Shown here in pieces: positions 1 through 42,018 of a stretch of DNA of 42,018 nucleotides. The first letter of the stretch is position 1; every line of letters begins with the position of its first letter. Position numbers and translations under genes: made by a program. Source of the stretch: a virus; the IMG/VR virus record IMGVR_UViG_3300045303_000036, positions 1 to 42,018 of that record. One strand, given 5' to 3'. The notes below the pieces were generated by a model. It was not told the DNA's origin and searched no databases. It saw nothing but the letters and a program-made list of their open reading frames with translations.

Positions 1-165
1 ATCCGGTACAAACGTCATCGGCATGCCAAAGTTGGCAACCTTGGTGACGGCCGTGCCCTTGCCGGGGGGCGCCTCGCTGACAGGCTTGCCCATCAGCGGC
101 AGCGTTGCCGTAACGTCAACGACAGGCAGACCGCCTGCCGCGACGGTGTTGACCGGCATGCCCAT
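1..165 (-). CDS. Virion protein with shared N-terminal module (partial, runs off left edge)
   Basis: Only the first 55 codons are in the window and the frame is open to base 1. The start at 165 (Met-Gly-Met-Pro) has a good ribosome site, GAGGAG, a few bases upstream. The 55 residues match the N-terminus of the cadherin-type fibre at 771-3938: about 39 of the first 53 residues are identical, including PVNTVA, VVDVTAT, PVSEA and AVTKVANFG. A module shared by two virion proteins of otherwise different sequence is most simply a docking segment for the particle (inference). The frame is also open upstream to an ATG at 327, so a longer product starting there cannot be excluded. Joining base 1 to 42018 keeps the frame and leads into the SPRY-like C-terminus at 41701-42018, so these may be two ends of one gene. 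Confidence 0.75.
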   Translation of the reverse strand, partial: MGMPVNTVAAGGLPVVDVTATLPLMGKPVSEAPPGKGTAVTKVANFGMPMTFVPD

Positions 166-222
166 GTTGCTCTCCTCAAGTGAACGTAAAGGCTCGCTGC
201 ACGCTCTCGCCAGCAGAATTCT

Positions 223-327
223 GATGTCGCTGATGACATGCGGACACGGTAGACTGCTGCGAGCCGGCGGCGTTGCGGGTTTGACGAACCGCCATCGCCC
301 AGGTTCGATCTCGACAAGCTGTGTCAT
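223..327 (-). pseudogene. Truncated duplicate of the conserved gene at 41372-41704
   Basis: ATG at 327 follows the previous stop by one base (TGAGATG). It reads 35 codons that closely match the first 34 of the gene at 41372-41704: EIEPGRWRF, KPATPPARS, LPCP and VISDI are shared. After VISDI the similarity stops abruptly and the frame runs, still open, into the next gene's start at 165. The remaining C-terminal residues of the intact copy are missing. The DNA of the two segments is also clearly similar. I read this as a broken copy left by a duplication. It could still be translated as a short peptide or as an N-terminal extension of the downstream protein. Confidence 0.65.
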
Positions 328-328
328 C

Positions 329-757
329 TCAGTTGATCGTGAACAACGCCCCTGCCGGGATCGTGTAGGTGTTGGTGTTAGCCATCGTGATGGGGGAGCC
401 GTGATCGATCCAGCCGATCACCGGGTTGAGCGGCGTTGTTGGTGTATCGTTCCAGAAGATCACATACCGGAACGGCCCAACCGCACCCGTCGCGGTCCAC
501 ACCACCGGAGCGGTGTTCGACACCGTAGTGACCTGTCCGGTGCGCGCGAACGTCAGCGTAATAGCCTTGCCGGCGCCATCCGCGGCCGTGATATAGCCGT
601 TGCCATTGGCGATCTGCGTCACATTCGACAGCAGAAACGTAGTGCTTAGAACCGGCGCGGTGTTGCTTAGCGCCAGCCGGAACGTGTCGGAGTTGAAGTC
701 GTGGATCTTGTTGGCGATATCCTCAGAGAGGCAGTCTGGTTCTGTGAATGTTGCCAT
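329..757 (-). CDS. Small virion/decoration-type protein, 142 aa
   Basis: Starts MATFTEPD. It has the composition of a beta-rich phage structural protein, with many Thr, Asn, Ala and Val residues and few charges. The layout resembles a common family of small phage virion proteins: an N-terminal NKIHDFNSDTF segment, then alternating strands, then GPFRYVIFWNDTPTTPL and a C-terminal GWIDHG segment. The family match is from memory and no function is assigned. Start 757 was chosen because the longer upstream frame is antisense-like and lies inside the fibre gene; spacing to the fibre stop at 771 is 13 bases. The stop is one base from the following ATG at 327. The gene lies in the run of tail and surface proteins, so a decoration or tail role is likely. 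Confidence 0.7.
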   Translation of the reverse strand: MATFTEPDCLSEDIANKIHDFNSDTFRLALSNTAPVLSTTFLLSNVTQIANGNGYITAADGAGKAITLTFARTGQVTTVSNTAPVVWTATGAVGPFRYVIFWNDTPTTPLNPVIGWIDHGSPITMANTNTYTIPAGALFTIN

Positions 758-770: not shown

Positions 771-3700
771 TTAAGTTTTGATCTCGATCTTCGCGACGAA
801 TACCGAATTGAAGGCATCGCCATCGGTATACCCGGTGGCATTCGCGACACTCGCGGTATTGCCGCCAACATACCAAACATGGTCGATGGCGTTTGTTACT
901 CCGGTGAATATGCTCACACCTGCGACAGCCCCATAGAACGCAATAACCAGGTCTTTGGCTTCGTCGTAGGCCTCGTTCAGCGTGCACCAGTCGCTCACGA
1001 GGGTTGCTGGGTTTGTCACGGCCTGGGTGTATGTACCGGAGCCGAAGTCGCCGCCGGTTAGTTGCACCATTGCCGTGGTGTCGTACTGGTCGCCACCTGT
1101 CGAGCCCTGGCCCACATAGCAGATGATCGTCGCCCCGGCCCCAAGCAGGGGGAAGCCGATCGTAATGCGGATCTGTTGCCCGGTCGCCGCCGAGAGGTTG
1201 GCCGCGCCGGTAACTTGCCGCATGGTGGTGCCGCTGAGACCCGGAATGGTGGCGCCGGTCAGTGTGGTTTGAAAGACGGTCGTAGGGCCGCCAGCAGTGG
1301 AAAAGACCGGCGTGATGGTCTGGCCAACGATCGGCAATGAGCCCGGCGTTATCGTTTCGCTGGTCTGCGCCGGCCAGATCGACTGAGCGTAAGACAGATA
1401 GAACTTCTTGGCCCAGACACCGCCAATGTCGTTGAAGCTGCGGATGTCGATGTAATACTGCGACTGATCGTAGGCCTCCGGCTTGCGCGGGTTCAACTCA
1501 CCCTGCATATCGATCCATCGCTTGATATAAAACAGCCACGCGCCGGATGTGTCGAAGGCCTGCCACTGAGCTGACAGGCCGGCAGCGACAATAGCGACGG
1601 CACAGCCGACGTTGTACTGGGTTGCGAGAGTTTGATATTCGCCGCCGTTGTAAAACTCGTATGTCGTGCTGCTGGTTGGCGGCGTTGTGAAGTCCGTATA
1701 CATGGCAGCGCGCTTGGTCGTCTGGTCGTAGCCTGCGAAAAGAATAGATGGAGGGCTCACCGTCCCATGACTGGGGCTAATAACATAGGTTCCCGTGCCG
1801 CCAGTCGTGCCTGATGACTGACTTACTATGTAGGTGCCAGCGGTGATGCCAGTCCCAGAGATCGTCATGCCAAGGCGAATTGGATTCGGACGAGAAATTG
1901 GATTGGTGTCAATGAATGTGATCGTCAATGCGGTGCCGGAAATACTGCCCAGCGTAATAAACCCACCGACAATACGCCGCGCGTCGCCCGCCCCAGGCCC
2001 ACTGGCCAGATACAGCACGTAGTTTTCATAGCCGCTGGTCGATGGTGCGCCAGAAGCAAGCTGTATCCAACTCGCCGCGCCTGCCCGCGCCGTTCCCGAC
2101 GAATGGGTCAGCCAATGCGGCTCGCGTGCACCTGTCACGTCGCGCTGGTCGTGGTTGTCGCCGAACGGCCCCGCCGGATAGGCGGCCGAACTGATAACAC
2201 CGTAGATCGGCTGGCCGTAAGGATATGGGCCGGTCGCGGTTCCAATGAATACCGCGCCGTGTTCCTGATAATAGGGAACGGTTTGGCCGGTATAGATCGC
2301 CACCGGGGCCGGCGTCGTTTTCATTGCAGAGTTATTGAGGAACACGCCAGCCATGAACACAACCGGCGCAAGGCCTTGTCCAAAACCTGCCCCGGCGATG
2401 CAGCACGGCTTGTTGTACAAACTCTGCGCGTACCAGTCCAAGCCCTGCCTGACAATGCGGTCGATCAGCATGGTGCGCGAGGTCGATGTGGAAATGGCGC
2501 CAAGCAACACCAGCGCGGCGTTGCCGGACTGATAAGCAGGATAGGACTCCTGCGAATAGGTCGGGCTGACGAGGTTGATCTGATGGCCGGTGTTGAATTC
2601 GCCGCTCTGAATTGTCGGCCTGATGAAGAGGGTTTGATACGACCAGTCCGGCTCGACGGCGCCTGACGGGATCGCCAGCGGCGTAATGGCGCTGTAGTTG
2701 ATGTCGGCTTGCGTCGTAGTCGGCTTGCCGCCAGCAACAAGGAACCCGGTTGGCTTGATCGTGTTGGAGGCGGGTGACGAGGCCACCACGGTGATCTGCA
2801 CGATGTAGGCGCAGCCGCTGTTGGCGCCGCCGCTCTGCACGGTGTCCAGGCCGCGGTAGAGCCAGATCGTCTTGGGCGAGCTGGTGCCGTCTGCGTAGTG
2901 ATCGACCGTCAGCGGCAGTGTTTTGGCCAAGGCGCCGTCGTAGATAAGGCCAGGCCCGATCCCGCTGCCATACCTGTTGTCGAACCCTTGCGTGGCCAGC
3001 CCGGCGGGCTCGACCATGACACCGCCGAGATAGACATCGGTTGTCACGCCGGCGTGGATCGCGACGCTGTTGAGAACAACGCCACCAGGCGGCGCAACGA
3101 TCCACCAACTGCCATCAACGTATTGCCCGGTCGTCCGCAGTCCGGCGAACGTAGCGTCGAGGCCGTCTTGCGTAATGACCGTCGTGGTGCCGGCTTCGAA
3201 TACGTCCGTTACCGTCACCGTGATGGTCTGGTTGGTCGTGAGGCTGGCCAGGTCGGTGGCGCGGACCTGGACGATGTAGGCGTTGTTGGTGTCGGCGTCG
3301 TCCGGCGTCTCGAAGTCCTTGGTGCCGTTGGACGCCCACCTCAAGGTCGAACCAGACAGCTCGAACCGTGCCTGGTCCGCACCGCCGACGATGCTCCATG
3401 TCACGGTTTCGTTGGCGGTCAATGTAAACGCCAGCGGCGTGTTCTCGACGTTGCTGACCGTGCTGCCGGACGTGATAACCGGCGCGGTGTCGTCTATATC
3501 GGTTACGACAACCAGGATAACCTGGTCCGTAACAGGCGGCGTCAGGCCGGTTACATGCACGGTTACGAGGTGTGAAGTTGCCGTCTCGTAGTCCAGCGCC
3601 GCGGCGGTCTTGAGCAGCGCGCCAGTAATGGAGAACTTGCCGCCGGCACTGTCGGTGAGTGTGTAGACCGGCGTGCCGGTGCCTGGGTTGACGACCGACA

Positions 3701-7298: not shown

Positions 7299-7872
7299 CG
7301 GGCTTCTCCGTCTTGAACATCAATGTGATCCGCATCCCCGTGTAGCTCCGCGTCACGCCGTTGGCGCGGTGCGGCATGCGGCCGTCGAACACGATAATGC
7401 TGTTGGGCCGGGGGAAAGAGCAGGCGGCGATCCGGTCCTCTCGCTGGTTGTAGAACAGCGTCTCGCCGCCCCAGTTTGGGCTCCACCGCTCGTGGGGGTA
7501 GTACACGGCGGTGTAGTTGCCCGGCTCACTTGCGTCGGAGTGAACCGTGCCGTCCATGCCGTAGGCCATGCCGTTGGCGTAGCACCGCACCAGCGTATGG
7601 CCGGCAAATACTTTGTCCCTGACGTGCGACCAAGCCTCGAAAATGAGCGGAGCATTCGTCAGCAGCTCGACCTCGCAGTCGTAGGCCTTGTCGACGCCGG
7701 TCTTGCGGTGACCGGCGTAGTGCTTGTGCAGGAACGAATAGCCGTCGCGCTTTGAGTTGGACTTCCAACCGGTCTCCCAGCCGCGCTCCGTGAGAAAGTC
7801 GTACAGCTTGCCGCGCATCTCCTCGGGGAATGCGTTCTCGTGCCGCACCGGTTTCTCGAACACCAGCGTCAT
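7285..7872 (-). CDS. 2-oxoglutarate/Fe(II)-dependent dioxygenase, prolyl-4-hydroxylase-like, 195 aa
   Basis: The double-stranded beta-helix signature is visible. His111 and Asp113 (VHSDAS) and His168 (MPHRANG) form the Fe(II) facial triad, and Arg181 (TGMRITLMF) fits the 2-oxoglutarate carboxylate-binding position. WGGETLFYN and IIVFDGRMPHR match prolyl 4-hydroxylase-type cores. Enzymes of this family hydroxylate a protein or nucleic-acid substrate using O2 and 2-oxoglutarate; the substrate here is unknown. The start overlaps the portal stop (ATGA), so it is translationally coupled to the portal. Length is normal for a single-domain member. All expected metal ligands are present, so it should be active. 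Confidence 0.85.
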   Translation of the reverse strand: MTLVFEKPVRHENAFPEEMRGKLYDFLTERGWETGWKSNSKRDGYSFLHKHYAGHRKTGVDKAYDCEVELLTNAPLIFEAWSHVRDKVFAGHTLVRCYANGMAYGMDGTVHSDASEPGNYTAVYYPHERWSPNWGGETLFYNQREDRIAACSFPRPNSIIVFDGRMPHRANGVTRSYTGMRITLMFKTEKPDAIA

Positions 7873-10247
7873 TGGTTAGCCGTGGGATAAGGCTTCATTG
7901 CCGCCTGCTTCTCCTTGAACAATTGCCCGCGCTCGGCCATCTGCCGCTTCGACGCCATGTCGGCCGATCGGTTCTGCGCGTCCACCTGCTTCTGTTCCGC
8001 CATCTGCGTGTGCAACTGCATCTTCTGCTGGCCCTCGACCAGCTTCTGCTCGTGCTGCTGCGCATCGAACTGCGCCTTTACCTGAAGGTGGCCCATCTTG
8101 GCCTCCTCGAGCCGGCGCTTGCTCTCGGCCTCGAACATCGCGACGCGCTGCTCGCCCTGCAGTTTTGCAGCCTCCTGCGCGCCCTGCTGCTGCAGCTTCG
8201 TCATTTCCAACTGCGCCTTGCCGTCGGCCTCGGCCTTCTGCGCCTCGAGCTTCTTCATCTCGATCTGCGCCGTGGTGTCGAGCTTCTTCTGCTCGGCCTC
8301 CAGCTTCGGGTCGGGCTTGCCGATCCGCTGGCTCGCCATCATCTCGACCTGCTCGACCAGGTTGTCGATCGAGCCGTCCAGCGTGCGGCCAACCCGGAAC
8401 GGCGCCACCGAGAACTTCAGCAACTCGCCGCAGAACTCGGCAGAACCCGGCTGCGCCGCGATCAACGCACCCAACTGCGGCAGCAACTGCGCCATCATGC
8501 CCATGAACTCGCCGCGGCGCTGCTTCTCGGCGTTCTCGTCGGCCTGGATGGTCGAGTCGGTCTCGATGTCGAGCACGAACGCCGTGGTGCGGTAGTCGCG
8601 CAGAAACTCCTCGATCAGCTCCTGCGTCGGCTTGTTCTGCTCGTCCTCGATGTTGCCCTTGAGCTGCGTGTACTGCTGCTGCAGCTCCTGCATCTGCTGC
8701 GGGTTGCCCTGCACCGCCATGGCCTGCGCCTGGGGTGCGGCTTGCGCCTGCTGCATCTGCTGCATGGCCTGCTGCTGGATCATCTGCAACTGCTGCGCCA
8801 TGGCAAACATCTTCTGCTGCTGCTCGGCCTGCGTCGGGATCTCCATCTGCGACATCTGCAACAGCGTGCCGAAGTCGAAGTCGCTGCACATGATCTCGGC
8901 AATGATCTCCTCGAGGTCTCGCGCGACGCGCACCATCTCGCCCTGCTTGTCGCGGATGCGCACTGAGCCAAACTGCGACTTCAACTGCTGCGCGCCCAGC
9001 GTCTCGGACGGATCGGTCGAGCCGCGCATGATGTCGCTCAGACCCATGATCTGGTAGATGTCTTCGATGATCTGCTTGCGCACCGCTATCACCGCCGTGA
9101 TCGTGTTGGCGATCATGTCGATCGGCATCCAGATGATGACTTCCTTGCTGCCGCCGAACGCCGCCCAATTGCTGATCGGCACGAGCACGCGCCCGGGCGA
9201 CTTCATCTTCACCGCAGCCTGCACGGCGTCGCTGATCTCGGCTGAGCCCGCCGGATAGAAGCCCTTCACCTCGAGGTACTGCGCAAGCGCGTGCAGCCGC
9301 CCCGTCAAGGTGTGCACCTCGTCGAGCTGGTCCTTGTATTGCAGTACGTCAGGAACGGGGATCAGGCTGCCCGGCTGCGTGGCGCTGTACGCCGGCATGG
9401 GGCACGGGAAGAAGTTGTTGAGCTTGGCAAGCTCGCTCGGCTCGGCGCTGTCGAGCACGTCCTCGCAGCCCTCGGCAACCCAGACAACCTTGTTCAAGCC
9501 GCGATGCCAGATCTCCCAGAACTGCGCCCGCTCGCGGTTGTCGCTGCCGCCTATTTCCTGAAGGTCCTTGTCAACCTTGTACTCGGCCTTGGTGTACTCG
9601 TCGTCGCTGTACTTGCTGAACCGCGCCTTGGCCTGCGCCCGCGTCATGTAGCTCGCGGCCGCAACCCACGTCACCTCACGCCAGTTGCGCGACAGGCTGT
9701 GCAAAAAGTCCTTGCGGCCCTTGTGATCGACGCAGACGTATTCCGACTTGTCGCGGTCCTTGTCGGCCGGCTCGTACCGGCACCACGCTACGCCGCGGCC
9801 GGTGGTGGCCAGATCGTCGCGCACCAGCTTGAGCAGATCGTCAATGCGCGTCAGATCGAACGCCACCACGGAACACCGCTCCAGCAACTCGCTGGTGGTT
9901 TGGTAAAGCGGCCGCCTGTCCTTGAACTTCGGCACCACCACCGGCACCGGCGGCTTGGCGTAGATGCTGGGCTTGAGGATCTCTAAATTGGCCCAGAACA
10001 GGTTGAACTGGCGATCGCGTTCTAACGAACGCAGGAAGCTAAGGTTGGCATACATCCGCTCGATGTTGTCGCAACTCTCGTTCCACTCCTGGAAAGCCTT
10101 CTCGGACTCGTCCAGCATGTTGAGCCAGGCTTTCGCCTTCTCGGGCTCCATGGCCGGGTTGTATTCGCTATCAGCCGCGCGCTCGTCTTCGCCTGTCGGG
10201 GCCAGTTCTTCCTCAGCCGGCTCCAGGCTTCTGTCCTCGTCCGCCAT
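7869..10247 (-). CDS. Portal protein, 792 aa
   Basis: This is the head-vertex ring through which DNA is packaged and ejected. Length, place two genes after the terminase, and sequence pieces fit podovirus-type portals: FWANLEILKPSIYAKPPVP near residue 85, LVRDDLATTGRGVAWCRYE, and an LPDVLQYKD-like segment. The C-terminal 300 residues are unusual: a Gln/Met/Ala-rich stretch (about 460-540) and a long Lys/Glu/Ala/Gln-rich coiled coil (about 650-780). This could form the barrel/crown that projects into the head. The start is 6 bases after the preceding stop, and the stop overlaps the oxygenase start (ATGA). Confidence 0.85.
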   Translation of the reverse strand: MADEDRSLEPAEEELAPTGEDERAADSEYNPAMEPEKAKAWLNMLDESEKAFQEWNESCDNIERMYANLSFLRSLERDRQFNLFWANLEILKPSIYAKPPVPVVVPKFKDRRPLYQTTSELLERCSVVAFDLTRIDDLLKLVRDDLATTGRGVAWCRYEPADKDRDKSEYVCVDHKGRKDFLHSLSRNWREVTWVAAASYMTRAQAKARFSKYSDDEYTKAEYKVDKDLQEIGGSDNRERAQFWEIWHRGLNKVVWVAEGCEDVLDSAEPSELAKLNNFFPCPMPAYSATQPGSLIPVPDVLQYKDQLDEVHTLTGRLHALAQYLEVKGFYPAGSAEISDAVQAAVKMKSPGRVLVPISNWAAFGGSKEVIIWMPIDMIANTITAVIAVRKQIIEDIYQIMGLSDIMRGSTDPSETLGAQQLKSQFGSVRIRDKQGEMVRVARDLEEIIAEIMCSDFDFGTLLQMSQMEIPTQAEQQQKMFAMAQQLQMIQQQAMQQMQQAQAAPQAQAMAVQGNPQQMQELQQQYTQLKGNIEDEQNKPTQELIEEFLRDYRTTAFVLDIETDSTIQADENAEKQRRGEFMGMMAQLLPQLGALIAAQPGSAEFCGELLKFSVAPFRVGRTLDGSIDNLVEQVEMMASQRIGKPDPKLEAEQKKLDTTAQIEMKKLEAQKAEADGKAQLEMTKLQQQGAQEAAKLQGEQRVAMFEAESKRRLEEAKMGHLQVKAQFDAQQHEQKLVEGQQKMQLHTQMAEQKQVDAQNRSADMASKRQMAERGQLFKEKQAAMKPYPTANQ

Positions 10248-10974: not shown

Positions 10975-12344
10975 AGTCGCAGTCCTCTCATGTCTCGCTC
11001 GTCTGTCGGCGGTGGAATTACCCAAGCCCCAGGCTCGATCTTCGTCTCAATTGGCTGCCTTGGAATGTTACGCCATGCTAGGGACAAATACCTAAATGCG
11101 TCTGCGGGATGACTCGTCCAGTCATGTACCGCTGTCGCCTGAAAGGACTTTGTCTCGTCTTTCCATTCTCTTCTATATTGTTCTAACGCGCTAATACCTT
11201 GTTCCTCACACCTAGGGTGAAACACGCACAACGGCAGCGTGCGCCGCACCGCGTTGATCCCGTCAGCAATAGAAGCCATAGGCACCAGGAATGGCTTAAG
11301 CCCAAGAGCCTGCATCGTCTCAACACGCGTCCTACCCGAGCCCCACTCCTTGATCTTAGCGTCGTGCGGTACGAAGTCCGTGCCGTGCTTCCATCCATGC
11401 AGCAGCTCCCGCTTCTTGATCTCCTCGGCGTAGTGCTCGACGCCGGCCCCGCTCGAGGAGTAGCAGTCGAGCACGAAGAGCTGCGCGCCGACAACCTGAA
11501 ACCACCATATGCTGGTGTCGTCCGTCACGCCGAGATCCCATGCGCGGTGCACATACTGATCCGGCAGCGCCTCGATCGCGTCGACGCGGCCCTCGGCGCG
11601 CACGTTGGCCATTTCGAGCGAGTAGAACGCGCCCAGGATCGCCGCCTGGAAGTCGCAGAAATATTCCTGCCTGTATTGAGCTCGGCCTACGTCCTCACCG
11701 TACAGCGCCGTATACTCGGCGAGCGCCTCGGCGAGAGCGTCGTCACTTAGCGCCTCCGTGTCACTCGCCGTCTTCAATTCAGCAAACCAGTCCTTCGACT
11801 GCGAGGCGTGCTGGAACAGAGTGAATGCGTGGTTGCGGCCACGCGGCGTGGTGATGAATGCGGCCCAGCCGTTGTTCTCCTCGAGCATCGGGCGGTGATA
11901 CGCCCACGCACTCGGGTTCGCCAGCGCCCACTCGCTGTAGACGATGCCGGCGGCGCCGCTGCCGACTGTGGTGTCGTACCTGTCGCTGCCAATGCACTGC
12001 CAGGTCGAGCCGTTCTTGAAACGAATGAACATCTCGCTGTCGTTGGTATTAGCGCGCAGTGCCAGTGGGAACGCTTCATCGATGCGGCGCTTGCCGGTGT
12101 GCGGGTTGATCGCTGTCCAGATCGCTTTTCGGCTCTGTGCATACTCTGGAGTGCAATGCCAGTAATTACCCACACGATCCACGTTCGCCGATAACGCAGT
12201 ATGATGTAGACAAACATCGTCCTTGCCAGCGCGACGATGCCAGACCGCCATCGCACGTTTGCCTCCGTTGCGCAGATATTTCCACAGTTCGATCTGGTGC
12301 GGCCGCGGCGTCCACTCGTTGTTGGGCAGACGCACACGGATCAT
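10971..12344 (-). CDS. terL: Terminase large subunit, 457 aa
   Basis: ATP-driven DNA packaging motor and headful nuclease. Walker A-like HRRAGKDD is at 36-43, Walker B IVYSE at about 134-138 and the coupling motif TTPRGR at 165-170. The RNase H-like nuclease half has acidic residues Asp270 (AWDLGVTDDTS), Asp293 (VLDCYS) and Asp415 (SHPADAFRY). Length is normal. The start overlaps the previous gene as ATGA and the stop overlaps the homing endonuclease start as GTGA. The packaging mode (cos or pac) cannot be decided from the sequence. Confidence 0.93.
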   Translation of the reverse strand: MIRVRLPNNEWTPRPHQIELWKYLRNGGKRAMAVWHRRAGKDDVCLHHTALSANVDRVGNYWHCTPEYAQSRKAIWTAINPHTGKRRIDEAFPLALRANTNDSEMFIRFKNGSTWQCIGSDRYDTTVGSGAAGIVYSEWALANPSAWAYHRPMLEENNGWAAFITTPRGRNHAFTLFQHASQSKDWFAELKTASDTEALSDDALAEALAEYTALYGEDVGRAQYRQEYFCDFQAAILGAFYSLEMANVRAEGRVDAIEALPDQYVHRAWDLGVTDDTSIWWFQVVGAQLFVLDCYSSSGAGVEHYAEEIKKRELLHGWKHGTDFVPHDAKIKEWGSGRTRVETMQALGLKPFLVPMASIADGINAVRRTLPLCVFHPRCEEQGISALEQYRREWKDETKSFQATAVHDWTSHPADAFRYLSLAWRNIPRQPIETKIEPGAWVIPPPTDERDMRGLRL

Positions 12345-13732: not shown

Positions 13733-14125
13733 TTAGCTTTTGGTGAAGCTTTTGCTTGGGTTTTGGTGCGCCGCAATAAAGCGTTCGACATTGTTTCGGC
13801 CCCGACTTATTCTCCCTCCCTTGGCACCGTAAACCGCACGCTTCAATTTGAGATCATTGGCTTTTTTCAACTCGCGATCTATCCGCGCATGTCGCCATTC
13901 CGGCCCAGAAAACATCGCCTGCAGTTTTGGCTTGATGCGACTCCATTGGCGCCCACCTAGGCAACAAATTGTTGCCAACCCACGATCGTCGATCGGCAAC
14001 GAGCCCTTTTGCCAGTATTCCATGATCAGCAAGAGGTAGGCGCCATGCTGCAACGTCGTGAGGTGGCGCGTATCAGCGAGGTAGTCGGCGACGTAGAGCG
14101 GCATCCAGATTGGGCGTGAGGTCAT
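13733..14125 (-). CDS. DUF1376 replication-associated protein, 130 aa
   Basis: RPIWMPLYVADYLADTRHL and HGAYLLLIMEYW are the signature of DUF1376, a domain found at the N-terminus of phage replication-initiation (O-like) proteins. RQWSRIKPKLQAMF follows, then a Lys/Arg-rich tail that could bind DNA. Length is short: only the DUF1376 domain plus a basic tail, with no helicase-loader or ATPase part. Starts ATGA-overlapped with the HNH-fused DUF1376 gene directly upstream, so the two are probably made together. A rare GANTC site (14129-14133) sits just before its start. Confidence 0.8.
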   Translation of the reverse strand: MTSRPIWMPLYVADYLADTRHLTTLQHGAYLLLIMEYWQKGSLPIDDRGLATICCLGGRQWSRIKPKLQAMFSGPEWRHARIDRELKKANDLKLKRAVYGAKGGRISRGRNNVERFIAAHQNPSKSFTKS

Positions 14126-14673
14126 GGTGACTCCTCGCCGGTTGCATCATGAATATCTTGGTGGCAATTGCGACACACCGAAACCAGATCGTCCAAATGT
14201 TCATGAAATATCCGGACATACGTCAGGTGATGCACTTCGGTTGCATCATTTCCGCACCGACATTTGAAACGATCGCGCGTTAGAATTTCACGGCGTTTTT
14301 CCTGCCATTCTTCGGATGCCAAATAGTCCTGATAATCCTGTTTCCGTTTCGTCGTGCCGATCGCTTTGAATTTTGAACGCCTGATCAACTTTTGGATATT
14401 CGCAACCTCGCGGTCGGCCCGCTCGTTGCGGAGGCAACCGTTGTCAACGTATAGCTTGCCGAGATCGAGTAGCCTGGCCTTGAGCCGACGCCAGCGTTGG
14501 ATATTACAGCCAAGCTCGCTACAGATAGCGCGCGCGTCATCCTCCAGCGCGCCGTCGTGTACGTAGATCAGATCAAGGATCGTGTTGTAAGCGCCGGTTT
14601 CCTCGAGCGTCAGGCCCATCATGCCGATCAGGGCTGCCCGCGGGTCGCGCTTGTACCATTTCAGGGTGCCCAT
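14122..14673 (-). CDS. DUF1376 protein fused to an HNH endonuclease domain, 183 aa
   Basis: Residues 4-90 are a DUF1376 domain (LKWYKRDPRAALIGM, GAYNTILDLIYVHDGAL, WRRLKARLLDLGKLY). Residues 118-176 are an HNH nuclease: EEWQEKRREILTRDRF, a Cys138-x-Cys140 knuckle, His148-His149 and Cys167-x2-Cys170-His171. The start at 14673 shares one base with the preceding stop (TGATG). A frame opening at 14886 lies within the upstream gene and is not used. The fusion joins a replication-initiation-type module with a nicking or cutting module. It may have arisen by capture of a homing HNH domain or may have a real nuclease role in replication (inference). Confidence 0.75.
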   Translation of the reverse strand: MGTLKWYKRDPRAALIGMMGLTLEETGAYNTILDLIYVHDGALEDDARAICSELGCNIQRWRRLKARLLDLGKLYVDNGCLRNERADREVANIQKLIRRSKFKAIGTTKRKQDYQDYLASEEWQEKRREILTRDRFKCRCGNDATEVHHLTYVRIFHEHLDDLVSVCRNCHQDIHDATGEESP

Positions 14674-15573: not shown

Positions 15574-15984
15574 CTAAGCAACGGCCTTGGCAGCGGTGCG
15601 CTGCCAGGACAGGCGTGTATGAAATGCGCAGTAGGACGAGCCGGATATGCGGGTTTGGCCGCAATACATTTGCGTTTGCGGCTCGCCCGGCATCCAGCGG
15701 CAGTGGTGGGCGGCGAGCTGGGCGAAATGCACTGGGCCGGCGGGTTTGGGCCGCACGCGCTTGATGCGGGCGAGGAACGGGAACTTTGGCTTGGCGTTGC
15801 GCGGCGGCTTGTTGCGGATCGGGCGCTTGCCGCGCTTGGCGCGCAGCAGGCCCAGGCGGCTGATCTTGCCCAGCACGGCCGACCGGCTGATGCCGAGCAC
15901 GGCGCCGATCGCGGTGCCGCTGTATCCGGCGAGCCACATCGAGCGCAGCGTGGCAAGCTGGTCGGCGTTCCATTCGAGGGGCAT
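15574..15984 (-). CDS. gcrA: GcrA-family cell-cycle regulator homologue, 136 aa
   Basis: GcrA is an alphaproteobacterial sigma-70 partner that activates promoters carrying CcrM-methylated GANTC sites. Both hallmarks are present. The N-terminal DNA-binding domain (LEWNADQLATLRSMWLAGYS, then AIGAVLGISRSAVLGKISRL, residues 4-45) matches the W...L..LW..G.S...IA..LG...R.AVIGK..RLGL pattern. The C-terminal sigma-binding part has CRWMPGEP (95-102), YCGQ (107-110) and SYCAFH (117-122), corresponding to C.WP.G.P / FCG / YC..H. The middle is basic and proline-rich. Length is a little short of chromosomal GcrA. A GGTGGG site precedes ATG 15984. It is the third gene after PL, so it would be made early in the lytic programme. 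Confidence 0.85.
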   Translation of the reverse strand: MPLEWNADQLATLRSMWLAGYSGTAIGAVLGISRSAVLGKISRLGLLRAKRGKRPIRNKPPRNAKPKFPFLARIKRVRPKPAGPVHFAQLAAHHCRWMPGEPQTQMYCGQTRISGSSYCAFHTRLSWQRTAAKAVA

Positions 15985-26014: not shown

Positions 26015-27628
26015 TCACCTGCCGTAGCTGGGATGCACTGTAATGCGCGTGCGTGGGTCTTCCTGCTCGCGCCGGATGATCGCGTCTGTGACAGCATTTC
26101 GACCGGCCAGCGTACCGGCGGTAGTCCCTGGCCCCTGGGTGGTGCCTGGGTTTAGAGCCTGCCGCCGAGCGAACTCAGGCGAATTGCTGCGGATGAGATC
26201 GTCTGCTTCGCCAACTGCGCGCTGCATCGCCCGGTTGCTTGTACTGCGCAACGCTCTACCGGCCAGGATGGGGGCGACAGTGCTCAGTATGGTGCTGGTT
26301 GGATCGCCGGTTGCATAAGCAGCACCGGCACCACCGGCACTACCCAGCACGGCTGGCGCAACCCAAGAGCCAATGCCGCCACCGCCGCCCAGCATGTTGC
26401 CGACGGTGCGGACGTTGTCCCAGGCGTCACCTCGCCGGGCGAGGTTCGTTAACGCTTCTCGCTCGGCACGCGGGAAACTTCGACCATCGGAGGCAAGGAT
26501 GCGGGCAACCCTGTTCCGCATATTGTTTTCGTAGTTGAGGCCGGAATGAGTTGCTGCCGTTCTGTTGGTAACGTCCTCCTCCGCATCACGCAGTATCTTA
26601 GAACGGATATTGGCGCCCGCGTTGCCGCGCGCCGCTTCAAATATCGCGTCAGCCGACTGCGCACCACGAACGGTGCCACTGCTAAGCTGATCAGCAGTCG
26701 GGTTAGCAGTGAAGTCATCCAGCATACGCTTGGCGACGCCTGACGCGGCAATGTCTGGATTCTTGGTAGACTTGTTGAAAGCCGCCCGGATGCTTTCGAT
26801 GTTGCCGGGAGAAAAGATGGCGTCTGAGCCGGTGCGGGCGGCTTCCCGTTCTGCCTTGGCGACCATATCAAGGCTTTTGAATGTGTTTTTTGCATTTCCT
26901 GAATGCCACCCTCCCGCGCCTAGTTCTTCCCTAATGGCGTCGGTAGCTGATCGAACTGCCGGTGCAGTACGATACACGTCGCCTGGGTTGCTGCGACCGA
27001 TAGCGTAGAGCGTGTCGGTGGCCTCGCCTAATTCACCCGGTGTAGGCACCGCTGCGTTTGAGCGTGGCGCTAAACTGGAACGTGGTGTTAGTGGCCCTAG
27101 AACGGAGCCAGCGGCACCGCCAATAGCAGCACCCTGCGCTACATTACCGGGCAGGCTTTCCAAGTCATAGGTGTGGCCGGCCGACTGTGCCGCGCCTTCT
27201 AAGGCTCCCTCGGCACCGTAGCCGGCGGCCCGTCCTGCAATGCCACGCAAGCCTGCCTTGGCGCCTCCGGCCAATGCCGCGGCACCCGCGCCGATAGCCC
27301 GCAGCGGCGTTGCCGCCATTGTCGCCAGGCCCCCGCCCACGTCGCCGCCAATGGTGGCCCAGGGGCTGCGGGCGCGTGCCTCCTTGGTTTTCTGGATGGC
27401 GCCAGGCTCCAGGCCGGTAGCTTCCAGAGCGCGGTCAGCCAAGCCAAAAGAGCCGGTATCGACGGCGGCGCGCACAACGTCGTCTGCGGTACTGCCGATA
27501 CCGCTGAGGACGCTGCCCCAACCACCCTTGGCTCCTGGCGCGGCAGAGGACGCCGCCTGCACTGGCGCAGGCCCGCCTCGGAGCTTGGTAAGCTCGCCGC
27601 TGAGATCGTCGTCAAATGCGCTGCCCAT
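26015..27628 (-). CDS. Internal virion protein, 537 aa
   Basis: Gly/Ala-rich with long glycine-zipper stretches (GAGAAALAGGAKAGLRGIAG, GAAIGGAAGSVLGPL, WVAPAVLGSAGGAGAA) that suit membrane insertion, framed by helical segments. This composition is common in podovirus ejection proteins that form a trans-envelope channel. It starts on the overlapping TAATG after the transglycosylase gene, so the two are co-produced. The role is inferred from composition and place. Confidence 0.6.
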   Translation of the reverse strand: MGSAFDDDLSGELTKLRGGPAPVQAASSAAPGAKGGWGSVLSGIGSTADDVVRAAVDTGSFGLADRALEATGLEPGAIQKTKEARARSPWATIGGDVGGGLATMAATPLRAIGAGAAALAGGAKAGLRGIAGRAAGYGAEGALEGAAQSAGHTYDLESLPGNVAQGAAIGGAAGSVLGPLTPRSSLAPRSNAAVPTPGELGEATDTLYAIGRSNPGDVYRTAPAVRSATDAIREELGAGGWHSGNAKNTFKSLDMVAKAEREAARTGSDAIFSPGNIESIRAAFNKSTKNPDIAASGVAKRMLDDFTANPTADQLSSGTVRGAQSADAIFEAARGNAGANIRSKILRDAEEDVTNRTAATHSGLNYENNMRNRVARILASDGRSFPRAEREALTNLARRGDAWDNVRTVGNMLGGGGGIGSWVAPAVLGSAGGAGAAYATGDPTSTILSTVAPILAGRALRSTSNRAMQRAVGEADDLIRSNSPEFARRQALNPGTTQGPGTTAGTLAGRNAVTDAIIRREQEDPRTRITVHPSYGR

Positions 27629-32913: not shown

Positions 32914-34769
32914 ACGTTTGCTGCCATGCGGATGTAGGTTGCGGAGATCGAGATCAATTCGACGCTGGGCTTGAATTGCTGCCCGATCGTGACCTGGACG
33001 ATCGGCGCGTGGCTGAACCCAGTCTCGCCGATCGACACCCACATGGTGTTTCTAACGGGAGTAATGGATGCACCAGCCTGGTCCCACAGTGCTTGATCCC
33101 ACAGACCCTGGTCCCATACGTCCAGCGGGCCAGGATCTGGGCCGGCATTTGGGAATGGCGGTATCCGTAGCTCGTAGTCGGTGGTGGCGGTGAGCTGCGG
33201 CTCGAATGGCTCGCCGGCAGCACTGAAGAACGCCGCACGGGCCTGGAACCATGTGCATTGGTTTGGCGGCGACTGGAACATCTCCCAGCCACCGACAATT
33301 CTGCAGCCGTATGTGTTGCCTACGGTCTTGTGCAGGACATCGTCAAAGGTGGCGTCATCGAAGCCGGTGCTCTCGACTTGCTGGATCTTTCCGGTCTGGG
33401 TACCGAAGAACAGGTTGCCGCGCAGCCGCATAAAGCACATGGCGTCCCAGCCGACGTACCGCGACCAGGCGCCGGTATGCAGGTTGCTGACGCCAACCGT
33501 TTGCTTGTTGTAGGTAGCGCCGCCGGGCCAGTTAACGAACAGGGCATCACCCTCGTCCCACTTGACGAGCGACCACGGGATCTCGGTCTTGCTCTTCAGC
33601 TCCCGCATCCACATCGGCTCGATGTTGTAGGTGATGGCTGCCAGCGACAGCGCCGATACGTCCTTCTGGATCGCCGCCGACAACGGCACGATGCCATCGA
33701 CCGTGGCAACCAGGACATCGGCGCCAAGCTGCTGGTGTGCGTTCTTGCCGAGCGGCTTCGAAATGTCGTAGCGGCCCTCCTGCTTCCAATTGGCCGCGGC
33801 GGTCGGGTCTGTGCCGGTAAACACCAGCACCTCGCCCTGGTCGGTAAAGAAGCAGCACTTGTTGTCGATGCCGTCGCCGCTGCTGCCGGTTGACCAGCTG
33901 GTGCCAAACAACAGCGAGCCGCCGCGCTTGGCGGCGCCCGACAGTGGGATATAGATCAACTGCCCGCCAACTGCATTGATCGGCAGGCAGTAGGCATTCA
34001 TGGTGCCGCCTTCGACGAAGAACAGCCGGTTGCGGTATTTCCAGACGTAGGTGAGGCCGTGTCCGGTGGCGACCGTAGACGGTGCCGGTGGCGGCCCGGT
34101 GATCCAGCTCACGCCGTCAGAAGCCGTGTCCTGGGTCCACTGACTCGGTGCCGCCGTGCGCGCCGCGGCAAACGTGCCGCTGCCTGGACTGGTGTGCGCC
34201 ACGAGGCATTTCCAGTAGGTGTTGTCGGTGGTGTCGAGTGCGCGGGCGCCGACCGCATAGGCTGTCGAGATCGCCCAGGCGGCCGGCGCTGTCGTCGAGA
34301 GATAAGCCCACGTCGTGCCGTTGAAGCGCCGCACATGGTCGCCGGCATCGTTGACGGCAATGAGCCAGTCGCCGCCTGCGGTGGCAAACTGCGCCGTGCT
34401 GAAGTATCCGTTTGTGAGGGTGCCGACGCCCGTCTGCAATACCGGCGTGTCGGCAAACGATATGTCGAAGATCCGCGTGCTGGTGGCGCAGAACATGCGG
34501 TTGACGGCGCCACTAACGTAGTCGAAGCCGGAGCGCACGATCTCGACCGGATCAGGCAATTGCGCCCACCGCTCGGTGCCGCCACGCAGCCGCAGGCCCT
34601 TCTGAGTGGGAAACCAGTTGTCGATGATGTTGGCGCAGCCGGGTTTGACGTAGGCCCAATTCTCCACCTCGATGATGCCGCGGATCGGCGCCGGTAGCGT
34701 CAACGCCTGATAGTTGACAGCCATCTCCGAAGGTACCGGCTGGCGGCGGAAGGCTGCGTGTCCGCTCAT
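32910..34769 (-). CDS. Tail tubular/nozzle protein, 619 aa (P22 gp10-like type)
   Basis: The start region (NYQALTLPAPIRGIIEVEN, GCANIIDNWFPTQKGLRLR) and the long beta-rich body with VSWITGPPP and GHGLTYVWKYRNRLFFVEGG fit podovirus nozzle/packaged-DNA stabilisation proteins that close the tail below the adaptor. Late in the protein there is a short tandem of the WDQ motif (VWDQGLWDQALWDQAG). ATGA coupled on both sides. The assignment to the nozzle is by pattern and position. Confidence 0.75.
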   Translation of the reverse strand: MSGHAAFRRQPVPSEMAVNYQALTLPAPIRGIIEVENWAYVKPGCANIIDNWFPTQKGLRLRGGTERWAQLPDPVEIVRSGFDYVSGAVNRMFCATSTRIFDISFADTPVLQTGVGTLTNGYFSTAQFATAGGDWLIAVNDAGDHVRRFNGTTWAYLSTTAPAAWAISTAYAVGARALDTTDNTYWKCLVAHTSPGSGTFAAARTAAPSQWTQDTASDGVSWITGPPPAPSTVATGHGLTYVWKYRNRLFFVEGGTMNAYCLPINAVGGQLIYIPLSGAAKRGGSLLFGTSWSTGSSGDGIDNKCCFFTDQGEVLVFTGTDPTAAANWKQEGRYDISKPLGKNAHQQLGADVLVATVDGIVPLSAAIQKDVSALSLAAITYNIEPMWMRELKSKTEIPWSLVKWDEGDALFVNWPGGATYNKQTVGVSNLHTGAWSRYVGWDAMCFMRLRGNLFFGTQTGKIQQVESTGFDDATFDDVLHKTVGNTYGCRIVGGWEMFQSPPNQCTWFQARAAFFSAAGEPFEPQLTATTDYELRIPPFPNAGPDPGPLDVWDQGLWDQALWDQAGASITPVRNTMWVSIGETGFSHAPIVQVTIGQQFKPSVELISISATYIRMAANV

Positions 34770-38846: not shown

Positions 38847-39866
38847 TCAGCTACCCGGAGTCGGGTCGTACATTTTCCAATTAAACTTTGGGTTGGTCAT
38901 GCAAAGTTCGCCCATCCAGCCAATAAATTGGGCGATGGCGTCCTTGTCGATGGGCATCATTCCCTCACCCTTGAAGATGCTGTCGAAGTTACGGCTCGGG
39001 TGATAACGCAGCCGCAGGCTGTCGGTATGCAGGCCGTAGGTGGTGTCGGCCGGCATGTCCGAACCGATGCCGCCTTCCAGCACGATGGTGCTGCGCTTGC
39101 CGCCGCCGATGTACTCAAGCGTCGAGAAGCCCAGTTTGCCCAGCGAACCGCTGGTCTGGCGCTGGATGGCGATCGTTGCCGCGTCGTAGGCCTCGTAGTG
39201 CTCCTTCGACATCAACAGCAGATCGGCGTAGTCCTTGCCCCTCGACTGTGCCGTCATGATGCGGTTGAGCAGCGGACGAACGGTGGTCGAGGTGACTTGC
39301 GTCACGCCGGCCATGTACGACTGCACATTGAAGTACTGCGTCTGCCACCAGGCGTTCTGCGCCCGGTCGATGCCGCCATAGACGCCAGTGGTATTTGCAG
39401 TCGGGATCGCCGTCTGCAGGCCGGTGAGCTGCTTGCCGCCGCCGGCAGCGTGCAAGGCTGCGTCCATGGCGTCCTCGAGCGCGCGCTCGGCCGCGGCCAT
39501 GTAGCTCGAGAGCACGGCCATGACCTGGGCCTGGCCCTCGTTGTTGAGGATCTCCTGCTTGCTCAGGATGATGGGCACCGCCACCATCTTGGGCTCGAAC
39601 CAAGCATCGGCGAACAGATCGATCGCTGGGTTCAACAGCACATCATAGCCGTTGTACCATTGCGCGGTTTGCTTGGCGATCTGCAGCGTCTGGCGAATGC
39701 GCGGGCCGCTGTAGGTTTCCCACAGCCCCTTGTCACGCATCACCGCCAGAAGTGCGTTGTTGTCGGAGACGAGATCCTGGTAGGACGAGGAACGATCCTC
39801 GATCGCCATCGACAGGATCTGCTGGTAGGGAATATTACTTTCAGTTCCGACTGGAAGGATAGGCAT
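38847..39866 (-). CDS. Major capsid protein, 339 aa
   Basis: Follows the scaffold gene in the usual order and has the look of an HK97-fold shell protein: N-terminal helices (YQQILSMAIEDRSSSYQDLV), a central segment with EILNNEGQAQVMAVLSSYMA, and a C-terminal beta region (SDMPADTTYGLHTDSLRLRY, DAIAQFIGWMGELCMTNPKF). No signal peptide and no decoration insert. AGAGGA lies upstream of ATG 39866. Position, size and neighbours make the call secure; the exact coat family is not decided. Confidence 0.85.
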   Translation of the reverse strand: MPILPVGTESNIPYQQILSMAIEDRSSSYQDLVSDNNALLAVMRDKGLWETYSGPRIRQTLQIAKQTAQWYNGYDVLLNPAIDLFADAWFEPKMVAVPIILSKQEILNNEGQAQVMAVLSSYMAAAERALEDAMDAALHAAGGGKQLTGLQTAIPTANTTGVYGGIDRAQNAWWQTQYFNVQSYMAGVTQVTSTTVRPLLNRIMTAQSRGKDYADLLLMSKEHYEAYDAATIAIQRQTSGSLGKLGFSTLEYIGGGKRSTIVLEGGIGSDMPADTTYGLHTDSLRLRYHPSRNFDSIFKGEGMMPIDKDAIAQFIGWMGELCMTNPKFNWKMYDPTPGS

Positions 39867-39936: not shown

Positions 39937-41230
39937 CACGGCGAGCTGCTCTCTCGAGCGACTCCTGTATCGTTGGGTGTTTCGCTTCCCCGTTGCGCCG
40001 CTGCCCGGCTGAGGGGCGTGTGTTGGCAACACCGTTGCCGTCTGGAGCGCCGCTGATCGAGGTCTTTCGGGTCTGAGCCGGTGTGGTGCGGGTCTGAGCC
40101 GCCTGTGGTGCGCTGGAGGGCCGTAGCTTGTCCGCGCGGGCGTAAGCTTGCTCCAACGGGAAGCCAAGATCAAGTTCCAGTTTGATCTGGTCGGCCAATT
40201 CGTCGAACCGCGGGTGCTGCTCGGCGAACTTGTCCACCTCGGCGCGGGTGCCGGCGAACTTCTGCTGATACACGAACTGGCGCAGGATCTGGTTCTGCTC
40301 CTCGACCTGTTGGTGCAGTTGTCCGATCCGCATTTCGGCGGATGTCTGGCTGTTCTGCTGCCGGGACATCTGGTGCTGTTCCGGCGTCATGCTCAGGACG
40401 TGATGGGCGAAGTCCTGGACCGTGATGGGCCCGCCGTCCGGCCGCTTCCAGCCGTTGGCCCGCGCCACGTTCTGCACAACGATGTCGATGCCGCCAACCC
40501 AGTCCTGGCGGATCTTCTGCTCGATCCCGTAATAGTTATCCATTGTCTTGCGTAGCGAGGTGCCCTGCTTGGTGCAGAGGTCGTGGTAGGGACGCAGTTC
40601 CTCCATGACGTCGTGGTCGCCACGATAGGCGTCGTAGGCTCCCTTGAACTCTTTAGCCATTTTGTAGACCGCGCCACGCACACTCTCCGGCGCTGCCGCC
40701 CATTCGGTCCTGGCTTGTTCGCTGAAGCGTCCCGGCGGCTCGCGGTACGGCGCACGCTCGTCCAGCGGCTTAATGGCTGGCTTGGCCGGCTGCAGCGGTA
40801 ATTGCTGCTGTCCTGGCGGTTGTGCCTCTGCCGGTGCCGGCTGCTCGGCCTTGGCCGGGTCCTTGGCAAACTTGCCGGCCTCCCGATAGCGCTGCTGCGC
40901 CTCGGACGGCTTGCCGGTGCGCTCGGTTTTCTCGGCGATCTTGTCCGGCGCCGCCTTTTCCTTGACGGTAGGCTCCGGTGGGTTGTTGTGGCCCATGCCG
41001 GGGCGCTCGCGCTTGGCCGCCGCCTGCGCCTCGGTGGCCTTGGCGAACGCCTTCTCGAGCGCCTCCTGCCGCGCCACATGCGCCGGCTTGGGCGGCGCCT
41101 GGTCGCCGATCGGCGTCGGTGAGCTGACCGGCGCCTCGTTGACCGGCACCTCGGTCTGCGCTGGCGGTGTCGGAAGTGCTGGAGCCGACGCTGACGGTGG
41201 CGGTGCTGACGGTTGTGTCGTATCGCTCAT
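39920..41230 (-). CDS. Scaffolding protein, 436 aa
   Basis: Position before the capsid gene and composition support a scaffold: an Ala/Pro/Gln/Glu-rich disordered N-terminal 170 residues, a helical middle (FSEQARTEWAAAPESVRGAV, VMEELRPYHDLCTKQGTSLR), a coiled coil (EMRIGQLHQQVEEQNQILRQ), then a compact end (VDKFAEQHPRFDELADQI, LPLEQAYARADKLRP-like). It also has the GMGHNNPPE motif (78-86) known in rhizobial phage proteins. ATGA overlap with the small gene upstream. It ends 53 bases before the capsid ATG. Confidence 0.75.
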   Translation of the reverse strand: MSDTTQPSAPPPSASAPALPTPPAQTEVPVNEAPVSSPTPIGDQAPPKPAHVARQEALEKAFAKATEAQAAAKRERPGMGHNNPPEPTVKEKAAPDKIAEKTERTGKPSEAQQRYREAGKFAKDPAKAEQPAPAEAQPPGQQQLPLQPAKPAIKPLDERAPYREPPGRFSEQARTEWAAAPESVRGAVYKMAKEFKGAYDAYRGDHDVMEELRPYHDLCTKQGTSLRKTMDNYYGIEQKIRQDWVGGIDIVVQNVARANGWKRPDGGPITVQDFAHHVLSMTPEQHQMSRQQNSQTSAEMRIGQLHQQVEEQNQILRQFVYQQKFAGTRAEVDKFAEQHPRFDELADQIKLELDLGFPLEQAYARADKLRPSSAPQAAQTRTTPAQTRKTSISGAPDGNGVANTRPSAGQRRNGEAKHPTIQESLERAARRVGNGV

Positions 41231-41508
41231 GGCGCTGCCCTTCCTAATTTCACCTTCAACTTGTCCAGCACTCCGGCTACGAGATAGGCGTCATCGAGGT
41301 TCAGCTTTTTGTTCAGCCAAAAAATGATCTCCTCGGCGAGCTTGTCGAAGCCAGGATGCGTCTTGGCAAACTCATCGACCTTCTTGCGCATTAACTTGAA
41401 CTCGTCGGCCCGCTTGGTATTGGCCAATTGCCTTGCCGATCGCTTCTCGTCGTGCCTTTTCAGCACTTTCCTGAGTGCTTGCTTTCTTCCTGGCCTTCGG
41501 CTTTTCAT
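41227..41508 (-). CDS. Small paralogue of the scaffold C-terminal module, 93 aa
   Basis: Residues about 44-61 (VDEFAKTHPGFDKLAEEI) match the scaffold's VDKFAEQHPRFDELADQI at 12 of 18 positions, and a similar LDDAYLVAGVLDKLK end follows. The N-terminus is very basic (MKSRRPGRKQALRKVLKRHD). Start 41508 has GGAGATCGG upstream but overlaps the previous gene by 137 bases; ATG 41391 would avoid most of it. ATGA overlap with the scaffold gene. It may bind the same partner as the scaffold end, or regulate assembly, which is inference. Confidence 0.6.
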   Translation of the reverse strand: MKSRRPGRKQALRKVLKRHDEKRSARQLANTKRADEFKLMRKKVDEFAKTHPGFDKLAEEIIFWLNKKLNLDDAYLVAGVLDKLKVKLGRAAP

Positions 41509-41704
41509 TTCCGATCTCCACTAACCCAAGTTGCCTTCCAACCCGGCGGAACGCCGACTTGGACGTATAGAACCGGCCATCGACCTGTTCTGTCGGGTCC
41601 ATGATGTCGCTGATGACATACGGACACGGCAGATCACTACGGGCCGGCGGCGTTGCCGGCTTGCAGAACCGCCAACGCCCAGGCTCGATCTCCAGCAGTT
41701 TCAC
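41372..41704 (-). CDS. Conserved small protein upstream of the scaffold, 110 aa
   Basis: GTG 41704 overlaps the SPRY-like gene stop (GTGA). The first 34 residues (LEIEPGRWRF, KPATPPARS, LPCPYVISDI) are repeated as a broken copy at 223-327. Then EPTEQVDGRFYTSKSAFRRV-type sequence (here DPTEQVDGRFYTSKSAFRRV), then a Lys/Ala-rich tail. The DGRFYTSKSAFRRVG piece looks like a small folded unit with a basic tail. I recall similar proteins in rhizobial prophages but can give no function. It is overlapped by the next gene for 137 bases. Confidence 0.6.
   Translation of the reverse strand: MKLLEIEPGRWRFCKPATPPARSDLPCPYVISDIMDPTEQVDGRFYTSKSAFRRVGRQLGLVEIGNEKPKARKKASTQESAEKARREAIGKAIGQYQAGRRVQVNAQEGR
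41603..41704 (-). repeat. Intact partner of the broken repeat at 223-327
   Basis: The first 34 codons of this gene are duplicated at the other end of the window, where 35 codons remain. DNA similarity is clear across the segment and ends after the codons for VISDI. Confidence 0.7.
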
Positions 41705-42018
41705 GACGGCCACCCAGACGTGAAACTTGACGGCACGGCATAACTAAAAGCCGATGCGCCAAAGTTGGCCGTTATAACGTTCCCTGCAATGCAACTCGTT
41801 CCGCCGAATGTTACAAAAGGCACCATCGTTCCGGCCGGGATTGTTATGCCGCCAACACCCGTAACTGGATCATTGCTTGAGGTGACATTTGAATTCCAAT
41901 TTACGCCGGCGTCTCTGAACCATATCAACCGAGCATCCAGATCGACCGCTATGCCGATCCACGTTCCGGCCGTGTTAACACCAATGTTGATACCCGTGTT
42001 GGTGCCACTGGCCCAAAG
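41701..42018 (-). CDS. C-terminal part of a SPRY-like virion protein (partial, runs off right edge)
   Basis: Open from 42018 to the stop at 41703. The 105 residues contain WASGTNTGINIGVNTAGTWI, IGIAVDLDARLIWFRDAGVN and ITANFGASAFSYAVPSSFTS, which match the second half of SPRY/concanavalin-like modules common in phage surface proteins. The first half of such a domain is not in the window. The partial gene at 1-165 is in the same frame and direction if the ends are joined. The stop overlaps the next GTG start. Confidence 0.65.
   Translation of the reverse strand, partial: LWASGTNTGINIGVNTAGTWIGIAVDLDARLIWFRDAGVNWNSNVTSSNDPVTGVGGITIPAGTMVPFVTFGGTSCIAGNVITANFGASAFSYAVPSSFTSGWPS

What the first reader, a model, noticed from the sequence alone, without database searches (positions are those of the whole stretch)
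1..42018. GANTC is almost missing from the phage genome, while a GcrA homologue is encoded
Reading the whole window I count about 14 GANTC sites: 1883, 2545, 8554, 10105, 11111, 13939, 14129, 19948, 20295, 22630, 26758, 34142, 38858 and 39960. At about 60% GC the chance expectation is near 150. GATC, of similar composition, is plentiful. GANTC is the CcrM methylation site in alphaproteobacteria, and GcrA reads its methylation. A phage that avoids the mark yet carries the reader suggests selection to escape methylation-dependent control or restriction, or to reserve a few sites as switches (inference).
Basis: partly seen in the sequence, partly recalled or inferred. Interest (0 to 1): 0.8.

Follow-up and report, generated by a model that had tools for sequence, protein, structure and literature searches.

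The report
Phage lineage avoiding GANTC sites
This soil phage belongs to a lineage of viruses, probably infecting alphaproteobacteria, that have purged nearly every copy of the five-letter DNA site their hosts methylate for cell-cycle control, most likely to escape a DNA-cutting defence, because relatives that carry a DNA-methylating enzyme of their own, in one case of the type known to protect this site, have let the sites come back.

Summary
Confirmed: the window has exactly 14 GANTC sites, at the listed positions, against 126-149 expected (Markov order 0-2). Against protein- and codon-preserving shuffles the coding count is 12 versus 67 +/- 7. About a threefold deficit is ordinary: CcrM-bearing host chromosomes sit at observed/expected 0.18-0.48. 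The window (0.09) belongs to an uncharacterised soil-phage clade in which 24 large genomes hold 65 GANTC against 3094 expected (0.02). Serine after Asp/Glu is almost never TCN there (3% versus 62% elsewhere), so sites are removed codon by codon.

GcrA does not explain it: gcrA also occurs in a clade member with 85 sites and in phiCbK (0.38), and was not found in a genome at 0.015. All six clade members with a putative m6A methyltransferase have relaxed avoidance; the one with most sites (134) carries an enzyme 54% identical to phiLM21_p027, a proven GANTC methylase. This favours avoidance of a nuclease that cuts unmethylated GANTC over escape from the CcrM/GcrA mark. 'Reserved switches' is not supported: the 14 sites are mostly coding and not specially conserved. 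GANTC depletion in pelagiphages and GATC avoidance in coliphages are precedents. Nuclease and host are unidentified.

The parts
15574..15984 (-). GcrA homologue (136 aa), DNA-binding and sigma70-interacting domains both present
   Evidence: PF07750 4.4e-22; aligns to 7ye1, 5yiu and 5yix; below the NCBIfam GcrA equivalog cut-off
20767..21702 (+). tyrosine integrase: the phage is probably temperate
   Evidence: PF00589 2.2e-13
7869..10247 (-). portal protein, the marker used to define the clade
   Evidence: phrog_12082 4.4e-169; tree
1883..1887 (.). residual site GATTC, coding
2545..2549 (.). residual site GACTC, coding
8554..8558 (.). residual site GAGTC, coding (portal)
   Evidence: CTGTC in G001 and most relatives
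10105..10109 (.). residual site GACTC, coding (portal); shared with G001, G004 and L004, CTCTC in the others, i.e. a TCN/AGY serine codon swap after Glu
11111..11115 (.). residual site GACTC, coding (terminase)
13939..13943 (.). residual site GACTC, coding (DUF1376)
14129..14133 (.). residual site GACTC, coding (DUF1376)
19948..19952 (.). residual site GACTC, coding
20295..20299 (.). residual site GAGTC, intergenic by my gene calls
22630..22634 (.). residual site GACTC, intergenic, downstream of the PEP-CTERM-like gene
26758..26762 (.). residual site GATTC, coding
34142..34146 (.). residual site GACTC, coding
38858..38862 (.). residual site GAGTC, coding (major head protein); GCGTC in G001 and L006
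39960..39964 (.). residual site GACTC, coding; shared with G001, GCCTC in the others

Best explanation
The GANTC gap is restriction-site avoidance. Phages of this clade infect alphaproteobacteria whose DNA is marked by the orphan methylase CcrM (inferred), and in part of that host range they meet a nuclease that cuts GANTC when it is not methylated (inferred). Incoming or fast-replicating phage DNA would be unmethylated and vulnerable, so each site costs fitness and has been removed by synonymous and other substitutions, down to 0-7 per roughly 40 kb genome (depletion and codon signature shown). Members that acquired an m6A methyltransferase, in one case a homologue of a proven GANTC methylase, protect themselves and let sites return (association shown, cause inferred). 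The window is a mildly relaxed member of a subclade in which such methyltransferases come and go. GcrA is a separate early gene, probably a sigma70 cofactor acting on phage or host replication genes (inferred, as proposed for phiCbK).
For: GANTC is the only extreme motif: 65 versus 3094 in 24 large genomes, next abNcd pattern 0.45, GATC 1.10. Serine after Asp/Glu is TCN in 24 of 831 cases versus 62% elsewhere; in G058 and G029 53%. Near-zero GANTC characterises the clade, with about six separate returns. All six members with a putative m6A enzyme are relaxed (0.12-0.70), versus 6 of 33 others; Fisher p = 0.0003. G058 (134 sites) has an enzyme 54% identical to phiLM21_p027, GANTC-specific per PMC5537653, while its sister G062 has 3 sites. 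Remaining sites are 4:1 GASTC over GAWTC although mutational neighbours predict about 1:1, as expected of an enzyme with a central-base preference. Host baseline 0.18-0.48 with CcrM, relatives in hosts without CcrM 0.63-0.95.
Against: No GANTC nuclease was found in any host, and the hosts of the clade are unknown. About half of the relaxed members have no detectable methyltransferase (G014, G016, G077, G081, G089, L019), some being fragments. Specificity of the MT-A70 and Dam-type enzymes is unknown. The tree-corrected contrast is only 3 for, 0 against, 2 ties, and the 0.1 threshold was chosen after seeing the data. The window itself is probably temperate, whereas near-elimination is reported mainly for non-temperate phages (PMC6286503).
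Confidence: 0.62

Rival explanations
1. Escape from the CcrM/GcrA methyl mark: GANTC is avoided because host CcrM would methylate it, and GcrA-sigma70 or a methylation-dependent (type IV) nuclease would then act on phage DNA.
For: The site is exactly the CcrM site; gcrA is present in many clade members; type IV systems exist in general.
Against: A member with a homologue of a proven GANTC methylase has the most sites. Depletion is spread through coding sequence rather than promoters. GcrA presence does not track depletion. A reader of the mark gives no obvious reason for the GASTC/GAWTC difference.
Confidence: 0.15
2. Host amelioration only: the phage mirrors the GANTC scarcity of alphaproteobacterial chromosomes, with no phage-specific pressure.
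For: Rhizobial phages and prophages with distantly related portals mostly match host level, 0.12-0.48.
Against: The clade lies tenfold or more below any sampled chromosome (0.00-0.04 against 0.18-0.57).
Confidence: 0.07
3. The methyltransferase link is coincidental: relaxed members simply infect hosts without the selecting agent, and methyltransferases serve other systems.
For: About half of the relaxed members show no methyltransferase. Hosts of clade members are unknown. Outside the clade, phages with phiLM21-type enzymes sit at the ordinary level (median 0.29).
Against: All six carriers are relaxed, and none of 27 large records below 0.1 has an m6A enzyme. The best example carries a GANTC-type enzyme.
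Confidence: 0.16

Closest known systems
GANTC depletion in pelagiphages and a SAR11 prophage region (PMC9516812)
   Same: Same site, CcrM-bearing alphaproteobacterial hosts, depletion clustered by phage clade, no nuclease identified
   Different: Marine podoviruses of a low-GC host. Here a GC-rich soil clade with a quantified codon signature, a central-base preference and a link to phage methyltransferases
Restriction-site avoidance in phages (Rusinov 2018, PMC6286503)
   Same: Near-elimination of one short palindrome in dsDNA phages, strongest where no other protection exists
   Different: There the cognate host nuclease is known; here the site belongs to an orphan regulatory methylase and the nuclease is inferred
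GATC loss in enterobacterial phages (phiX174, PMC5014478; Deschavanne and Radman 1991 cited in PMC4687349)
   Same: Site of an orphan regulatory methylase (Dam) avoided by phages
   Different: Attributed there to Dam-directed mismatch repair, which is not known to use CcrM marks (own knowledge)
Phage GANTC methylases of phiLM21 and other sinorhizobial prophages (PMC5537653)
   Same: A homologue (54% identity) is encoded by clade member G058
   Different: Those authors propose a regulatory role; the data here suggest self-protection. The window itself has no such gene
GcrA homologue of Caulobacter phage phiCbK (PMC3556154)
   Same: PF07750 protein in a phage, proposed to raise host replication functions
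   Different: phiCbK shows only the ordinary GANTC deficit (0.38), so GcrA and site elimination are separable

Membership tests
Phage restriction-site avoidance | Site count far below composition and codon expectation | tested here: met
   14 versus 126-149; codon-preserving z = -8.2; clade 65 versus 3094
Phage restriction-site avoidance | Avoidance confined to the one site | tested here: met
   GANTC 0.021, next abNcd pattern 0.45, next tested palindrome 0.18
Phage restriction-site avoidance | Avoidance relaxes when the phage has another protection | tested here: inconclusive
   6 of 6 m6A methyltransferase carriers relaxed, Fisher p = 0.0003, but tree-corrected 3-0-2 and enzyme specificity mostly unknown
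Phage restriction-site avoidance | A host nuclease with that specificity exists | tested here: inconclusive
   A limited look beside plasmid-borne CcrM-like genes found none; no systematic nuclease search was possible
GcrA (PF07750) | Family profile above curated cut-off, both domains | tested here: met
   79.6 bits versus 26.9; DNA-binding and sigma-interacting parts align to 5yiu and 5yix
GcrA (PF07750) | Orthologue of the cellular cell-cycle regulator (NCBIfam equivalog NF050816) | tested here: not met
   49.8 bits versus cut-off 280
GcrA (PF07750) | Methylation-dependent DNA binding | not testable with these tools
   Needs a binding assay
phiLM21_p027-type GANTC methylase (in relative G058, not in the window) | Full-length homology and NPPF catalytic motif | tested here: met
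   54% identity over 207 positions with NPPF aligned
phiLM21_p027-type GANTC methylase (in relative G058, not in the window) | GANTC specificity of the enzyme itself | not testable with these tools
   Needs a HinfI protection assay

The most novel reading that the evidence does not exclude
Soil alphaproteobacteria harbour a widespread, undescribed anti-phage defence that uses the essential CcrM cell-cycle methylation as its self-label: solitary GANTC nucleases needing no methylase of their own, strong and old enough to have purged the site from a whole phage clade and to select phage-encoded GANTC methylases as the counter-move.
Probability: 0.35. Interest if true: 0.85.

Novelty: new member of a known kind. 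Interest (0 to 1): 0.6.

Why it matters
CcrM is treated as an orphan regulatory methylase. A phage clade that has erased its site, and regains it in members that carry a methyltransferase of their own, suggests that the same mark also separates self from non-self in alphaproteobacteria. That makes two open questions testable: why GANTC is scarce across alphaproteobacteria, and why so many of their phages encode CcrM-like methylases.

Tried and rejected
GcrA as cause: rejected by presence/absence across the clade and by phiCbK. Residual sites as switches: not specially conserved, mostly coding. General palindrome avoidance: only GANTC is extreme. Serine or dipeptide composition: excluded by codon-preserving shuffles and codon-context counts. 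Mutational bias as source of the GASTC-rich residue: one-step neighbours predict a ratio of 1.05-1.08, observed 4. Temperate versus lytic lifestyle as the driver: integrase-bearing genomes have more sites (p = 0.045), but not once methyltransferase carriers are removed (p = 0.12). PF01555 methylases: none in the 32 records tested; it was not run on G057 and G062, where SPPY-motif enzymes, probably m4C type, turned up, so the association counts m6A-type enzymes only. No annotated phage matches the late region at DNA level. A look for a GANTC nuclease beside plasmid-borne CcrM-like genes found none. Genes unique to methyltransferase-less relaxed members were listed and show no obvious modification gene by eye. 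My methylase motif scan missed some MT-A70 enzymes (versus 60), so absence claims rest on the profile searches plus seeds.
Full report
Observation. The window is a 42,018-base IMG/VR virus record. It holds exactly 14 GANTC sites, at the coordinates given, against 147, 149 and 126 expected at Markov order 0, 1 and 2. An order-3 model gives 43.5, but the 4-mers it uses are already depleted. GANTC is the lowest of the 16 palindromes of its shape, and GATC is in excess (336 versus 221). Shuffling synonymous codons within each gene, which fixes proteins and codon usage, gives 67.2 +/- 6.7 in coding sequence against 12 seen. The finding is real and is not a composition effect.

What the window is. 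Gene calls and family searches give a tailed phage with terminase, portal, major head protein, ERF/YqaJ/NinB recombination genes, two DUF1376 genes, a tyrosine integrase and a GcrA homologue at 15574-15984 on the minus strand. The GcrA aligns to both the DNA-binding and the sigma70-interacting domain of the solved C. crescentus protein but is far below the cut-off for the cellular orthologue. No DNA methyltransferase was found in the window.

Baseline. Hosts were sampled through prophages that carry a related portal. Alphaproteobacterial chromosome samples from genomes with gcrA and a CcrM-type RAMA domain lie at observed/expected 0.18-0.48 (order 1), with the divergent Rhodopila at 0.57; prophages in the same genomes lie at 0.09-0.48 (Rhodopila 0.67). 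Prophages in Burkholderiales with neither gene lie at 0.63-0.95, and Myxococcus phage Mx8 at 0.99. So the first threefold of the deficit is the known alphaproteobacterial scarcity (Gonzalez 2014, PMC3973325). The remainder needs another cause.

Lineage. Portal relatives in IMG/VR show that the window is one of the less depleted members of a large clade. In 69 loci below 0.06 there are 50 GANTC against 4282 expected. In 24 large genomes there are 65 against 3094 (order 2), four of them at zero, and no other abNcd pattern falls below 0.45. On the portal tree (FastTree, outgroup root) near-zero GANTC characterises most of 89 rows, with about six separate returns to higher values. The clade was not found closer than about 51% portal identity in 84,980 bacterial and archaeal species genomes, so the host is inferred from relatives and from GcrA, not shown.

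Selection acts codon by codon. In 18 depleted genomes serine after Asp or Glu is encoded TCN 24 times and AGY 807 times, while serine elsewhere is 62% TCN. NTC codons follow xGA codons 6 times in 370 (1.6%) against 51% elsewhere. The window shows the same (9% and 3%). G058 and G029, both methyltransferase carriers, do not (53% and 59%). The residue is itself informative: 52 of the 65 remaining sites have C or G in the middle, whereas one-step mutational neighbours predict an even split.

What releases the avoidance. MT-A70 enzymes (PF05063) occur in 3 of 79 records, G029, G082 and G004, all relaxed (0.54, 0.26, 0.20). Dam-type enzymes (PF05869) occur in G001 and G003, sisters of the window (0.12, 0.14), with one weak hit in a Bradyrhizobium phage outside the clade. 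G058, with 134 sites (0.70) while its tree sister L176/G062 is at 0.018, encodes a 211-aa enzyme 54% identical to phiLM21_p027, which is GANTC-specific as reported in PMC5537653. None of 27 large records below 0.1 has an m6A enzyme (Fisher p = 0.0003); over tree rows 6 of 6 carriers are relaxed against 8 of 83 others. The tree-corrected contrast is three for, none against, two ties, too few for significance. These tests were exploratory and the cut was set after seeing the data. Outside the clade, phages with phiLM21-type enzymes sit at the ordinary alphaproteobacterial level, median 0.29. About half of the relaxed members show no methyltransferase, and some of those are fragments.

Mechanism. 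If methylated GANTC were the problem (GcrA binding, type IV restriction), a phage methylating its own GANTC should suffer most; instead the member with a GANTC-type methylase has the most sites. If unmethylated GANTC is the problem, self-methylation relieves it. I therefore favour a GANTC nuclease somewhere in the host range, against which CcrM protects the host. That an orphan CcrM can protect a solitary nuclease has been proposed (Ershova 2012, PMC3488263), but no such enzyme was identified here. Near-elimination as an anti-restriction trait is reported mainly for non-temperate phages (PMC6286503). Here integrase-bearing genomes have slightly more sites, but not significantly once methyltransferase carriers are removed.

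GcrA. It is present in depleted and in relaxed members and was not detected in depleted G027; phiCbK has it with an ordinary deficit of 0.38, and Colossus, which lacks it, is at 0.53. It is best read as a separate early regulator, as proposed for phiCbK (PMC3556154). The window's residual sites are mostly coding, and the few that can be mapped are not better conserved than control motifs (2 of 6 in G001 versus 34-59%).

Novelty. GANTC depletion in pelagiphages (PMC9516812), GATC loss in phiX174 (PMC5014478) and restriction-site avoidance in general are known. New here, as far as the searched papers show, are the clade, the strength of elimination in GC-rich genomes, the codon signature, the central-base preference and the link to phage methyltransferases.

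Noticed in passing
window 21873-22607 (+): Secreted-looking 244-aa protein with a C-terminal PEP-CTERM/VPLPA-CTERM-like sorting signal (TIGR02595 16.4 bits versus cut-off 16), with a similar protein in relative G006 (L041:19153-19854). A phage-encoded putative exosortase substrate.
   Followed up: partly
window 14673-15218 (-): Unknown 181-aa protein beside gcrA with an E-E-K stretch that by eye resembles a PD-(D/E)XK core; no Pfam or NCBIfam match. At the similar place G001 and G004 have a methyltransferase followed by other unknown proteins.
   Followed up: partly
G057 21300-22268 and G062 2850-3977: SPPY-motif methyltransferases, probably m4C type, in strongly depleted genomes; their targets are unknown.
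   Followed up: no
clade-wide residual sites in 24 depleted genomes: Residual GANTC are 4:1 GASTC over GAWTC against about 1:1 expected from mutational neighbours (p about 2e-6): a possible fingerprint of the selecting enzyme.
   Followed up: partly
L077 (PP438406.1, Microcystis phage Mwe-JY13): A phage recorded from a cyanobacterium carries a GcrA-like gene, a related portal and an alphaproteobacteria-like GANTC deficit (0.34); its host assignment may be wrong.
   Followed up: no
G010 28509-29147 (-): GcrA homologue with a duplicated N-terminal helix-turn-helix domain.
   Followed up: no
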